Assembly: GCA_963855995.1 (NCBI GenBank)
Contig: OY979722.1
Location: forward strand, 5,488,001-5,552,000
Length of the DNA: 64,000 nucleotides
Direction of reading: 5' to 3'
Source: Muricea muricata
Lineage: Eukaryota > Cnidaria > Anthozoa > Malacalcyonacea > Plexauridae
Positions 44,232 through 50,920 of the stretch are shown here, one piece after another. Position 1 is the first letter of the stretch, and every line of letters starts with the position of its first letter. The notes below the pieces were generated by a model, which saw nothing but the letters and a program-made list of their open reading frames with translations, did no database searches and had not been told where the DNA came from. Made by a program: the position numbers and the translations under genes.

Positions 44232-47200
44232 TTAATAATCACAATACCATGTACTTGGATCATCAGAAGCGACAACGTGAGCATACCCTTCAGACGTATG
44301 TCTGACGTATGTATGGCTGCCTGAACCACTGGACAGGTCTGAATCCCTGCCACCACATGCCATACGTCTAAACATGTTGCCTGTCGGCGGCCGTGCATAG
44401 CTTGTCGTTCGCTGCATTCTTTGTTTTTTTGACGCGGACAGTTTTTTCGACGCAAAAAGTTTTTTCGACGCAAAAAGTGTCTTGCAGGATTTTGCAACAT
44501 TCCTTATATATACACATACCTTGGCAACGGACATCAAACTTTCATAATCAAGATAATGTAGAATCATTACAATTGCCTCGGCTGGCAGTCGTAAAAAGGG
44601 AGGGACGTCGTTGCTCCTTTGCAGAACGGTCTGCAAAAATTGCCATTGATCAAGTATCGCAATCTGTTGCCATTTCTTGCACCATGTTTGCTTGAAGTTG
44701 TCGCTCGGTTCATAACAATCTAACGCGGGAGAGGTAGGGCAGATATAATCCAGAAATGGTAGTCGAAGAACATTTTGACTGATGCTTTGGTAAAACGGCG
44801 AACGATACTGACCACTATCAACCAAGGCCAAGAGGCCTTGAGTTGCCTCCAGTGGCCTTCTAGTCCTAGCTCTGAATCGCGTACGGGTATAGGGTTTAAG
44901 CAAGTTAAAAATTTGGCGCAAACGATCGTTTCTTTCATTAGATGGCACTGACGTGACTTCTTCGGTTTTTTGTACATACTCAATCATAGCATCTATCGTT
45001 TTGTCCCACAAATCAATAAAACTGCGTGAAGAACCATAAACACATGCAAATAATGTCTGTTCAATAGATTTTTCAATTGATCTTAACATTTTTTCGAACT
45101 TCCTTCCCATTGCTTGGACCATGCGGCGAATTTCCAATTGAAAGTGATATGGATATGGTGCATTCCCAAAAACTTCTGCCAATTTATCATGCTTGAGCAA
45201 AAGCCAAACCACTTGAGGGTGAACAAGGCTGGCAAGTTTCAATACATCCTTCCACCAACTGTAAACAATTTTCTGCCTGCTCCCGTCGTTAAATTTCAGA
45301 ACCCAACCTTCTTGTCGTCTTTCATTCACTGGCAGAGCACCCGAAGTAAATGGCGGCCCTTTCGATGTGGTTGGCTCTTCACTAGACTCAATTCCACCAC
45401 AGTACCACAATACGTCTGAATATGAACCAGTAATTCGTGGTGTTACCATGAAGAATCCGATGGTTCTAGCACATTTTAATAACTCCTCGTAGGGTAACTC
45501 GTGACCACTTTCGTCAGTGATAGCAAGCAAGACAAGACCTTCAAACAGATAGCTTACAATCACGGTGTTGTCCTGGTAAATAATTTCAAACAGATACGTG
45601 TAACCAGCTTGAAATTTGGTCAGGTTACAGTGATCTTTGATCCATTGCTTCGCCCATATTGCTTGCTGGGAATCCATTCGTCGCCTAGTTGTCACCATGA
45701 CTTCACCATTCCACGTGAATGCTATACCAAGTGATCCATCATACTTTATGGTAGCTTCTACAATTTCATTTGAATTGCGACAACCCACGTCTATAAAGTA
45801 GATAAAAATGACAATTCAAATCAAGCAGACAAAAAAACAAAAAGTCGACTTTATAGTACATTGATACAGGTTCTCCTTCCTCCACCATACAGAGAAAGCC
45901 TGCTGGCAGGCTACAACGTGTCTTTAAGGTGATTTCAAAAGTTTAACGGAGTTGAACGTAATTTTGCACGCTTACTAGAGACCGGTGTTTGTGAATTTTT
46001 AAACATAAAATATGGTCTGTTTATTATACATTCTGTATGACCATAACAATTCGCCTACATAATTCATCTTTTGCATACATGTCATACCACTTAACCTTTG
46101 ATAAAGAGCTAATTCAATTCTAGTTTCCTTTTTAACAGCGTAAACTGTACACCATGAGCGCGCGAGGGATAATGGGTAAATCTTTTGGGCATTCGAAAAG
46201 CATGCACTCCTTTGTTTGTTTAGCTGGTTTATCACAAATCTGTTTTGTGTTGGTAGGCAAAAATTTACATTTTAAAAAAATACTTTTTAAACATAAATTT
46301 TATCTTTTATATCCTGCCATATAAGAAATTGAACCCTTAGCATTGACCAGTTTATCGTGAACACACATATTGCTTTGTTTGAAATGCCAAACATGTTTCG
46401 AAAGTATATATTCTATTCAAATATCATTTCATAAGGTTATTGGCGAATCATGTTAACCACAATAGGTCATGTGAGTTGAATTTATACCTGATAAAGTGCT
46501 AACTAGAATGACAAATATAATCTGTAACGTTCATTAGTATACAAATAATGATTGTTTATGAGTGCAATGGTAAGAATGTTTTCATAAGGTGAAAGATGGA
46601 ATGTTCCATTCAACGAGGCGATAGTTGAATGGAACATTTCATCTTTCACCGAATGAAAATATTCTTACCATTCCACGAATTAAAACATTCATTATTTGTT
46701 TTATATAATATCTTATTAAATTCTGGTCATTTGATTGGCTGCTTATGTTTTCATGCAAAGGAATTCATGCGATTTGCAGCGTATTTACTTGTTTTTTAGT
46801 ATTTTCGGCATCAGAATTGTTAATAAGTTCACACATATCACCCTCAGTTGCCAAAACAAAAGAGTTTTTACTGCAAGCTTCCTCCATTTTGATTTTTGAC
46901 GAGCAGTATTTGAATTAAATCCTATTTACATCATGTCTGTTTTGGCCGGATCATTGTTTAAAGTTAACTGCGATCATCGTACGAGGACGATTTTGACGGA
47001 TGGGATTTATCAAAACCATTAAGAGTGCAATGGAAAAAAACTATTGCACTATTACTCTTGCGAAAAGGGACATTTTATTTAATATCATGTGACCATAAGC
47101 AGCCAATTAAACGAACGTTATCTATCTGATGACTTCTACATTGTCTACATCATTTATACTGTATGTCATTAAGCGCTTTTTTATATTTCGCAAACCATAA

Positions 47201-50200: not shown

Positions 50201-50920
50201 CCACTTAACATCACGACAGCAGTGAACAAATGAAGCTGGAAGAGTAAATTCAAATTGGGAAACATTTAAAACGGATTGCAAACTTGTCAAGACACTCTTT
50301 ATTCCATTTGATTCCAGAAGCATAAACTGCAGGTTATTTGGAGATTCGTAAATTCGACATAGTTCAGGCTTTATATCCCAAAAAGAATGATGTGATAGGT
50401 TCAAGAAAAGCAATTTTAAATGTTTATAGTAGTTGCATAGATCATTTGACTTCTGCTTCCATTTGTAAAGATATTCACGAGTAGAAACACACATCATACG
50501 TAAATTATCAGTGTCTCTGGAGCGCTTGTTCCAGAATTCGTTTAATTGTTCTTCGTCAATATCAAATAACAATGCTGCCGTGATTTGAAGGCCATATTTC
50601 TTTGCTTCTGCTGTCACAAACTCCGCGTCTTTCAAATCTTTAACACAATTCAATATTAGCACGGCTGATTCTGACTTTTGGAATTCCATCAAGGTTGTAC
50701 CAATCAACGTATGGCAAAAATTTTTTATTTCATCCATATTCGGCTCCTGCCATGCGTTAATATAGTTCCCTTCGCGAAGCTTATCTCCAGTGGACAAAAA
50801 TGTGCTTGAAGGATACTGACGTTTTAACGACTCCTTTGCGTAAGTAGTCTTCCCACACCCTGTTGGACCAAGGAGAACAACAATGTTCTTCTTGCAGTGG
50901 TCAAGCTTCAAATACGCCAT
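44232..50920 (-). CDS. Copy A: adenylate-kinase-like / capping guanylyltransferase / T4 Rnl1-type RNA ligase / F-box protein
   Basis: Two exons, 49102-50920 and 44232-45790, join in phase 1 (GAAG|GTAATG to ATAG|ACGTG) to 1,125 residues. Start context is AAATGG. Domains: P-loop kinase with GPTGCGKT (18-25) and adenylate-kinase-like [10 protein letters not shown]; capping-type guanylyltransferase with motif I KADGVR (Lys252), VLDGEL (291-296), VFLVFDV, SDGLVF (405-410), LLFKWQ (Lys426), and OB-fold motif VI RSDKARPN (471-478); RNA ligase with [20 protein letters not shown] (before the splice), KYDGS (Lys622), FEII (Glu675), EGWV (Glu767), QKIV (Lys780); F-box about 1005-1044 ([20 protein letters not shown]). 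The splice cuts the ligase domain, which argues that both ORFs are one gene. No RNA triphosphatase domain is present. By family knowledge such modules could convert 5'-p RNA to 5'-pp, cap it, and ligate RNA; substrates are unknown. Intron 45791-49101 holds two repeat elements. Confidence 0.9.
46541..46705. mobile_element. Palindromic element in the copy A intron
   Basis: Arms of about 75 bp (CAATGGTAAGAATGTTTTCAT / ATGAAAATATTCTTACCATT; GAAAGATGGAATGTTCCATTCAAC / GTTGAATGGAACATTTCATCTTTC) with an apex of about 12 bases. A second inverted pair, GATTGGCTGCTTATG (about 46731) and CATAAGCAGCCAATTAA (about 47093), lies next to it with AGTGCAATGGAAAAAAAC in between. Non-coding. Confidence 0.6.
47217..48432. 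mobile_element. TIR element with poly-C tract in its ends, in the copy A intron
   Basis: The left end reads GGGTTGCCAAAAAAGCCCCCC and the right end (reverse complement) GGGTTACCAGAAAAAGAGCC then a C tract; both continue to a TCCC(G/T)..AAAAATGG stretch. Inner arms AAAATGGCGGTTTTAAATCG (about 47676) and GAAAATCGCCATTTTGAATT (about 48221), and AATAGCAATAAGTACAAGC / GCTTGTACTT, extend the symmetry. No transposase frame. The target duplication is unclear. Confidence 0.6.

What the first reader, a model, noticed from the sequence alone, without database searches (positions are those of the whole stretch)
44232..50920. Kinase - capping guanylyltransferase - RNA ligase - F-box in one animal protein
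Seen: one spliced gene with all four modules, each with its hallmark motifs, and the intron cutting through the ligase domain, so the two ORFs belong to one protein. Known: capping enzymes of animals normally have a triphosphatase plus guanylyltransferase; from memory, trypanosomatid Ce1 pairs an N-terminal P-loop RNA kinase with a guanylyltransferase for cytoplasmic recapping of 5'-monophosphate RNA; T4 Rnl1-type ligases repair or join RNA ends. I do not know a described animal protein that adds an Rnl1-type ligase and an F-box to these. Inference: an RNA-end decision enzyme that phosphorylates 5'-p RNA, then caps or ligates it, with turnover or substrate control through SCF. Roles could include recapping, RNA repair after nuclease damage, or antiviral RNA processing.
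Basis: partly seen in the sequence, partly recalled or inferred. Interest (0 to 1): 0.96.

Follow-up and report, generated by a model that had tools for sequence, protein, structure and literature searches.

The report
Coral kinase-capping-ligase-F-box fusion protein
A soft coral carries three copies of a gene whose predicted protein joins an RNA-end kinase-like part, an RNA-capping part, a phage-type RNA-joining part and an F-box, a combination that looks new and could decide whether broken RNA is capped, rejoined or destroyed.

Summary
Two exons (50920-49102 and 45790-44232, minus strand), joined at a GT-AG phase-1 intron, encode a 1125-aa protein: adenylate-kinase-like P-loop domain, capping guanylyltransferase, T4 Rnl1-type RNA ligase, F-box. 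DNA similarity between copies A and B is nearly confined to the exons. The joined protein matches the Rnl1 family across the junction (PHROG 562, E 1e-28; Pfam PF09511 over cut-off). The host is an octocoral (mitochondrial MutS gene). Hallmarks of a canonical capping enzyme lie elsewhere in the genome. New caveat: in 3 of 3 copies both nucleotidyltransferase domains lack the second motif V lysine (KWQ, KIV), and copy B's capping motif VI is degraded. So the domains are real but catalysis is not assured. The kinase assignment rests on weak profile matches; structure prediction failed (pLDDT 31-33). Most likely an RNA 5'-end recapping-or-sealing enzyme tied to a ubiquitin ligase, activity unproven. 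I found no description of this architecture in the searches I could run, but no eukaryotic sequence database was available.

The parts
49102..50920 (-). Copy A exon 1: kinase-like domain, guanylyltransferase and first part of ligase domain (606 aa plus 1 base)
   Evidence: conserved with copies B and C
50396..50920 (-). Copy A P-loop kinase-like domain (residues 1-175; [16 protein letters not shown])
   Evidence: NCBIfam PRK14527 adenylate kinase E 2e-6, below its cut-off; profile of three copies against PDB adenylate kinases E 1e-4
49640..50188 (-). Copy A guanylyltransferase catalytic domain PF01331 (residues 245-427; motif I KADGVR, III LDGELL, IV DGLVFTP, V FKWQ)
   Evidence: E 9e-17; motif positions
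49424..49582 (-). Copy A capping enzyme C-terminal domain PF03919 (residues 447-499; motif VI VRSDKARPN)
   Evidence: E 1.9e-6
49102..49168 (-). Copy A ligase domain, part of the PF09511 match encoded by exon 1 (from RGLVLH)
   Evidence: PF09511 match residues 585-775 spans the junction at residue 607; PHROG 562 match about residues 554-851
45791..49101 (-). Copy A intron, 3311 bp, GT-AG, phase 1
   Evidence: DNA similarity to copy B ends 32 bp past the donor and 8 bp past the acceptor
44232..45790 (-). Copy A exon 2: rest of ligase, linker, F-box, tail, stop
45285..45788 (-). Copy A ligase domain, part of the PF09511 match encoded by exon 2 (KYDGS, FEI, EGW, QKIV)
44478..44597 (-). Copy A F-box (PF00646 / PF12937)
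   Evidence: E 5e-7 for PF12937, over cut-off
58733..60554 (-). Copy B exon 1 (tandem paralogue; 75% identical protein; motif VI reads VCNSK)
56320..58732 (-). Copy B intron, 2413 bp, same position
54887..56319 (-). Copy B exon 2 (ligase, linker, F-box); protein 1084 aa in all

Best explanation
A single nuclear gene family of an octocoral (three paralogues found) encodes a multi-domain RNA 5'-end processing protein. Shown by sequence: the fused order P-loop kinase-like domain, mRNA-capping-type guanylyltransferase with its C-terminal domain, T4 Rnl1-type RNA ligase, linker, F-box; and the same split of the ligase by one intron in all three copies. Inferred: the kinase-like domain adds a phosphate to RNA 5' ends (pRNA to ppRNA, as in TbCe1, or OH to p); the guanylyltransferase can cap ppRNA; the ligase seals a 5'-phosphate end to a 3'-OH end; the F-box ties the protein or its bound client to a Skp1-Cul1 ubiquitin ligase. 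The likeliest use is repair or recapping of cleaved or decapped RNA under stress or infection, apart from housekeeping capping, for which the same genome has the hallmarks of a separate canonical enzyme.
For: Gene structure and in-frame junction. Two further paralogues with the same exon structure. A-B nucleotide similarity nearly confined to the two exons. dN/dS (NG86) A-B 0.145/0.323 and A-C 0.393/1.87, so purifying selection, with A-C dS near saturation. Copy A domain hits over curated cut-offs for capping enzyme, cap C-terminal and F-box and for RNA_lig_T4_1. PHROG 562 on 3 of 3 copies, best E 4e-33. In the PDB profile search with the ligase region the top 3 of 6 hits are RNA ligase 1 / T4 RNA ligase 1 / 'RNA ligase' (2c5u, T4 Rnl1 as recalled), E 1.2e-6 to 1.6e-5; the other 3 have E 0.21 or more. 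The 15 columns invariant across 3 coral and 4 phage ligases include K, D, G of motif I, E of motif III, EG of motif IV and the first K of motif V (motif labels from general knowledge). Canonical capping enzyme hallmarks elsewhere, on C11: HCTHGFNRTG, WKADGVR, MLKWKP, HREDKSFPNSY (not assembled into a gene). TbCe1 precedent for kinase plus guanylyltransferase (PMC11417388). The archaeal ligases MthRnl (Thr) and PAB1020 (Val) naturally lack the second motif V lysine, so its loss need not abolish ligation (PMC3514331 passages).
Against: Second motif V lysine replaced in guanylyltransferase (KWQ) and ligase (KIV) of 3 of 3 copies; in T4 Rnl2 the K227Q change cuts enzyme adenylylation but keeps slower sealing (PMC3149579 passages). 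Copy B: motif VI VCNSK, no PF03919 match, and its capping region also passes the DNA ligase cut-off (PF01068 27.9 bits against 26.2). Copy C: TGA before the F-box, and its F-box is just under Pfam's cut-off. Kinase matches below family cut-offs. PF09511 matched only 2 of 3 copies, was not reported for a longer joined stretch, and did not ring in the genome search, where the controls were silent too. AlphaFold models without value (pLDDT 33.2 and 30.8), so no fold-level test. No expression data. Pattern-based searches found no relative of exon 1 in viral contigs or prokaryote genomes, tblastn none in phages; exon 2 none in viral contigs; the ligase region found only distant phage ligases.
Confidence: 0.5

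Rival explanations
1. An RNA-end sensor or F-box receptor: the enzymatic domains bind 5' ends or nucleotide but no longer turn over, and the F-box sends bound clients to degradation.
For: Second motif V lysine absent in both nucleotidyltransferase domains of 3 of 3 copies; copy B motif VI degraded.
Against: Motif I lysines, motif III and IV acidic residues, first motif V lysine and the Walker A lysine are kept in 3 of 3 copies, which a pure binding domain would not need; ligases lacking the second lysine exist in archaea.
Confidence: 0.22
2. A tRNA or mRNA break repair enzyme of the healing-and-sealing type: the P-loop domain is a 5'-OH polynucleotide kinase and feeds the ligase; the guanylyltransferase protects ends that cannot be rejoined.
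For: PHROG 505 polynucleotide kinase E 7e-5 for the N-terminal part; T4 Pnkp plus Rnl1 works so in phage (PMC11494293 passages).
Against: Adenylate kinase models score E 2e-6 in another library and adenylate kinases stand near the top of the PDB profile search; no phosphatase or cyclic phosphodiesterase family in the Pfam scan at E up to 1, so 3' ends would need another enzyme.
Confidence: 0.2
3. Decaying lineage-specific duplicates: a fusion once useful, now under relaxed constraint.
For: A-B dN/dS about 0.45, tail 29% identical A-B; in-frame TGA in copy C; copy B motif VI loss.
Against: Long open frames in A and B, similarity nearly limited to exons, A-C dN/dS about 0.2 and 68% identity in the ligase region.
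Confidence: 0.06
4. Two separate genes wrongly joined.
For: No transcript data here.
Against: PHROG 562 match runs from profile position 24 to 319 on the joined protein but only from 91-95 on exon 2 alone; same splice position and phase in 3 of 3 copies; the first in-frame codon of exon 2 is GTG in A and B but not a start codon in C.
Confidence: 0.02

Closest known systems
Trypanosoma brucei TbCe1 cytoplasmic recapping enzyme
   Same: RNA kinase activity and guanylyltransferase in one protein; guanylyltransferase active-site lysine K288 there (PMC11417388 passages), motif I lysine K252 here. That the kinase is the N-terminal part of TbCe1 is recalled.
   Different: No ligase or F-box is mentioned in the TbCe1 passages read; no sequence comparison was possible; motif V here is KWQ.
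Bacteriophage T4 RNA ligase 1 (Rnl1) family, PHROG 562 / PF09511
   Same: Sequence match over profile positions 23-316 of 377; motifs I, III, IV and first motif V lysine.
   Different: KIV instead of KxK in motif V (4 of 4 phage ligases aligned have KxK); fused to capping and F-box domains; about 25% identity to the best-listed phage ligases.
Canonical animal capping enzyme (triphosphatase-guanylyltransferase)
   Same: Guanylyltransferase and C-terminal domains (PF01331, PF03919).
   Different: No triphosphatase domain in the Pfam scan; the same genome has the canonical hallmarks on C11.
[quoted passage not shown]
   Same: A 5'-3' RNA ligase in an animal (PMC3400036 passages).
   Different: Stand-alone ligase with kinase and phosphodiesterase on other polypeptides; sequence not compared here.
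Human RLIG1 (C12orf29)
   Same: Animal 5'-3' RNA ligase of the lysyl-AMP type (PMC11494293 passages).
   Different: A separate family; the viral RLIG1 structure lacks the Rnl1 RNA-binding domain; no fused kinase, capping or F-box part in the passages read.
Fungal/plant tRNA ligase Trl1
   Same: Ligase and kinase domains in one polypeptide (PMC3400036 passages).
   Different: Also has a cyclic phosphodiesterase; the order ligase-kinase-phosphodiesterase and the absence of capping and F-box parts are recalled.

Membership tests
T4 Rnl1-type RNA ligase (PF09511, PHROG 562) | Profile match across the nucleotidyltransferase domain, over the Pfam cut-off | tested here: met
   PF09511 35.3 bits against 28.3 for copy A, 2 of 3 copies match at E<=10; PHROG 562 3 of 3. 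Against: a 501-aa joined stretch gave no PF09511 match; the genome search with PF09511 gave none, controls silent too; TIGR02308 24 bits against 242.
T4 Rnl1-type RNA ligase (PF09511, PHROG 562) | Motifs I KxDG, III E, IV EG | tested here: met
   K89, D91, G92, E142, E234, G235 invariant in 7 of 7 sequences.
T4 Rnl1-type RNA ligase (PF09511, PHROG 562) | Motif V KxK | tested here: not met
   KIV in 3 of 3 coral copies, KxK in 4 of 4 phage ligases. Hence filed by homology only, not as a proven ligase; MthRnl and PAB1020 are ligases of other families without the second lysine.
T4 Rnl1-type RNA ligase (PF09511, PHROG 562) | Ligation of 5'-p to 3'-OH RNA | not testable with these tools
   Needs an enzyme assay.
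mRNA capping guanylyltransferase (PF01331 + PF03919) | Both Pfam domains over cut-off | tested here: met
   Copy A 62 and 29 bits, copy C 54.6 and 29.2; copy B has PF01331 (59.3 bits) but no PF03919 at E up to 1, and passes PF01068 DNA ligase as well.
mRNA capping guanylyltransferase (PF01331 + PF03919) | Motif V KWK and motif VI RxDK | tested here: inconclusive
   Motif V KWQ in 3 of 3 copies against KWK on C11 in the same genome and in the 3 capping enzymes aligned; motif VI RSDK in A and RQDK in C, CNSK in B.
Canonical animal capping enzyme | N-terminal cysteine-phosphatase-type triphosphatase | tested here: not met
   N-terminus is a P-loop domain; no phosphatase family in the scans.
TbCe1-type recapping enzyme | RNA kinase fused to guanylyltransferase, pRNA to GpppRNA | tested here: inconclusive
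   Architecture agrees; TbCe1 sequence not available and activity not testable.
Adenylate kinase family (PF00406) | Profile match over cut-off | tested here: not met
   18.2 bits against 26.8; best described as an adenylate-kinase-like P-loop kinase.
F-box protein | F-box profile over cut-off | tested here: met
   Copies A and B over cut-off; copy C 19.5 against 20.5.
F-box protein | Skp1 binding and SCF assembly | not testable with these tools
   Needs a pull-down.
Trl1-type tRNA ligase | Ligase, kinase and cyclic phosphodiesterase in one chain | tested here: not met
   No phosphodiesterase family in the Pfam scan at E up to 1, kinase-like domain is N-terminal.

The most novel reading that the evidence does not exclude
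The paired loss of the second motif V lysine marks a division of labour: neither module readily charges itself in the usual way, and the protein hands activated 5' ends between its own domains. The ligase would then seal RNA that is already activated at its 5' end (adenylylated, or even guanylylated/capped by the neighbouring domain), making capping and joining two exits of one intermediate, with the F-box as the third exit (destruction). No known enzyme works so, as far as I recall.
Probability: 0.06. Interest if true: 0.93.

Novelty: new variant of a known kind. Interest (0 to 1): 0.76.

Why it matters
If active, this is one animal polypeptide that can both cap and join RNA 5' ends and is wired to protein degradation. 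It would make RNA repair and cytoplasmic recapping in animals directly testable with a recombinant protein. It would also give a natural case of the same motif V change in two related domains at once.

Tried and rejected
Two-gene or chance reading: rejected on the three paralogues, splice conservation and the profile match across the junction.

Viral or bacterial insertion: exon 1 found no relative in viral contigs, prokaryote genomes or phages; exon 2 none in viral contigs and was not scanned in prokaryote genomes. The pattern-based scans reach close relatives best. The genes have GT-AG introns and lie on a 15-Mb and a 72-Mb contig. The ligase region alone finds 455 phage records at E up to 0.1, best about 25% identity, so an ancient phage-like origin of this domain is possible but not tested; no eukaryotic sequence set was available.

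Structure route: two AlphaFold jobs with three-row alignments gave useless models, so no fold search was run.

PF09511: exon 2 alone gave none at E<=1, but a 501-aa joined stretch also gave none at E<=10 while a 343-aa joined stretch gave E 1.4e-8. HMMER's filters are the likely cause (inference), so I do not use the difference as proof of splicing; PHROG 562 is the cleaner test. Bit scores: 101 joined against 86.4 for exon 2 of copy A alone, by another tool.

Papers: the searches returned 0 papers. The listings (20 of 342 shown; 3 of 3; 2 of 2; 15 of 36; 15 of 40; 8 of 233; 7 of 7) held no title that describes this architecture; unlisted papers were not seen. Burroughs and Aravind 2016 on RNA repair (recalled) is not held. 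PMC3174198 passages were seen and not used. Mutational data on T4 Rnl1 beyond the papers cited were recalled and not used.
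Full report
What is there. On the minus strand of the window, an ORF at 50920-48989 and one at 45788-44232 join at a GT-AG intron of 3311 bp (49101-45791) to a frame of 1125 aa plus stop. The intron is phase 1 and has 62 stops when read in phase.

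Copy B lies next to it in the window (60554-58733 and 56319-54887, 1084 aa, intron 2413 bp). Copy C lies on another contig, G000:C2 near 70.157-70.165 Mb, with an intron of 4604 bp at the same position and phase. Searches of the host genome with the exon 1 and exon 2 proteins returned matches at these three loci and no other (the tool calls its counts lower bounds). PHROG 562, the Rnl1 family, matched at these three as well and nowhere else. B is 75% and C 52% identical to A in exon 1. In the ligase region the figures are 82% and 64%.

Between A and B, DNA similarity falls in two blocks, 49070-50922 and 44460-45798. They begin 2 bp before the ATG, run 32 bp past the donor and 8 bp past the acceptor, and end before the divergent tail, 228 bp short of the stop; introns and flanks do not align. 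This makes the exon model firm. A-C matches include exon pieces, and also two short blocks (about 86 bp) inside the introns and a 199-bp block in the flank, which look like dispersed repeats. dN/dS by NG86 is 0.145/0.323 for A-B and 0.393/1.87 for A-C.

Host. The mitochondrial contig (19,292 bp) carries a 985-aa MutS with an HNH end: PF00488 E 2.7e-33, PF05192 and PF01844. Octocoral mitogenomes are reported to carry an additional mismatch repair gene mtMutS (PMC5474008 passages); that other animals lack it is recalled. So the genome is most likely from an octocoral, and the finding's word 'animal' is right.

Domains. Copy A: PF01331 mRNA_cap_enzyme E 9e-17 and PF03919 mRNA_cap_C E 1.9e-6; F-box-like PF12937 E 5e-7 and F-box PF00646 E 1.4e-6, each over cut-off. 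Capping enzyme alpha subunits lead its PDB sequence search. Ligase: the joined protein matches PHROG 562 over profile positions 24-319 (E 1.3e-28), whereas exon 2 alone matches from 91-95. In a three-copy profile search of the PDB the top three of six hits are RNA ligase 1 entries, E 1.2e-6 to 1.6e-5 (2c5u is named only 'RNA ligase' there). PF09511 scores 35.3 bits against a cut-off of 28.3 over residues 585-775, across the junction at 607 (2 of 3 copies match). It was not reported for a longer joined stretch.

The N-terminal domain has a clean Walker A (GPTGCGKT) and STGDKLRE. In the PDB profile search a small phosphate-loop protein (6c2u) comes first and adenylate kinases next (E 1e-4); 110 sequences, many of them other P-loop proteins, reach E 1. 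NCBIfam PRK14527 adenylate kinase gives E 2e-6 and PHROG 505 polynucleotide kinase E 7e-5. None reaches a curated cut-off where there is one. I therefore call it an adenylate-kinase-like P-loop kinase of unknown substrate.

Most RNA and DNA ligases carry two lysines, KxK, in motif V (PMC3514331 passages). Here the capping domain reads KWQ in 3 of 3 copies, against KWK on C11 in the same genome and in the three capping enzymes aligned. The ligase reads KIV in 3 of 3 copies, against KxK in 4 of 4 phage Rnl1 enzymes. In T4 Rnl2 the K227Q protein has little enzyme adenylylation but keeps slower sealing of pre-adenylated strands (PMC3149579 passages). In the archaeal ligases MthRnl and PAB1020 the second position is naturally Thr or Val. 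So the change does not prove loss of ligase activity, but full three-step ligation cannot simply be assumed. Copy B also has VCNSK where A has VRSDK and C has VRQDK in motif VI, has no PF03919 match, and passes the DNA ligase cut-off (PF01068) in the same region. Copy C has an in-frame TGA in the linker, with a recognisable but sub-threshold F-box after it; whether a further small intron removes the TGA is not known.

Not the housekeeping enzyme. On C11 the genome has the hallmarks of a canonical animal capping enzyme, spread over several frames as exons would be: HCTHGFNRTG (triphosphatase), WKADGVR, MLKWKP and HREDKSFPNSY, with three PF01331 pieces. The three fusion genes are an addition to it.

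How it most likely works. Shown: the fusion, its duplication, its constraint. Inferred from families: 5'-end phosphorylation, GMP transfer, end sealing, and SCF recruitment. TbCe1 is the precedent for kinase plus guanylyltransferase, turning decapped pRNA into GpppRNA (PMC11417388 abstract and passages). T4 Pnk and Rnl1 are the precedent for kinase plus ligase in tRNA repair (PMC11494293 passages). Putting both outcomes in one chain suggests a choice between recapping and rejoining a 5' end; the F-box adds a possible route to degradation. I give this reading 0.5, a sensor or pseudoenzyme reading 0.22, and a 5'-OH healing-and-sealing reading 0.2.

Distribution and novelty. Exon 1 found no relative in viral contigs, prokaryote genomes or phages, and exon 2 none in viral contigs. 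The ligase region found 455 phage records, best about 25% identical. No eukaryotic protein or genome set was at hand, so I cannot say whether other corals or animals have it. Text searches for the combination found nothing (partial listings), in an open-licence library only. I class it as a new variant of a known kind: known modules, one known pairing (kinase-guanylyltransferase), and a four-module architecture that I have not found described.

Noticed in passing
window 44460-45798 / 55019-56327 and 49070-50922 / 58701-60556: Synonymous divergence between copies A and B falls along the gene (dS about 0.65 kinase, 0.33 guanylyltransferase, 0.17 ligase, 0.09 F-box), which suggests gene conversion in the 3' exon.
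   Followed up: partly
window 46529-46612 and 46626-46711 (intron of copy A); window 42667-42865: Short blocks shared with the intron and flank of copy C; the intronic pair matches the same C element in both orientations, as a palindromic dispersed repeat would.
   Followed up: no
window 16362-17000 (+): Another F-box ORF in the same window (PF12937 E 4.6e-11); not compared with the fusion genes.
   Followed up: no
window 36724-38841 (-): ORF with PF02995 (DUF229), E 1.7e-31.
   Followed up: no
window 3807-4661 and 7518-8522 (+): NmrA-like protein (PF05368) and phosphodiester glycosidase NAGPA (PF09992) ORFs.
   Followed up: no
L007 1131-2021 (-) and 2119-2937 (+): ORFs on opposite strands that look like pieces of non-LTR retrotransposons (endonuclease-like and reverse-transcriptase-like), upstream of copy C (identity judged by eye).
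   Followed up: no
G000:C1:38414782-38416095: A second COX1 match on a nuclear contig with one stop, probably a nuclear copy of mitochondrial DNA.
   Followed up: no
L008 5657-7000 (copy C linker): The copy C linker carries a run of similar 'DTSxxTTSKYEG' units absent from A and B.
   Followed up: no
window 58061-58725: Long simple repeat (alternating Tyr/Ile/His/Val/Met frames) in the intron of copy B.
   Followed up: no
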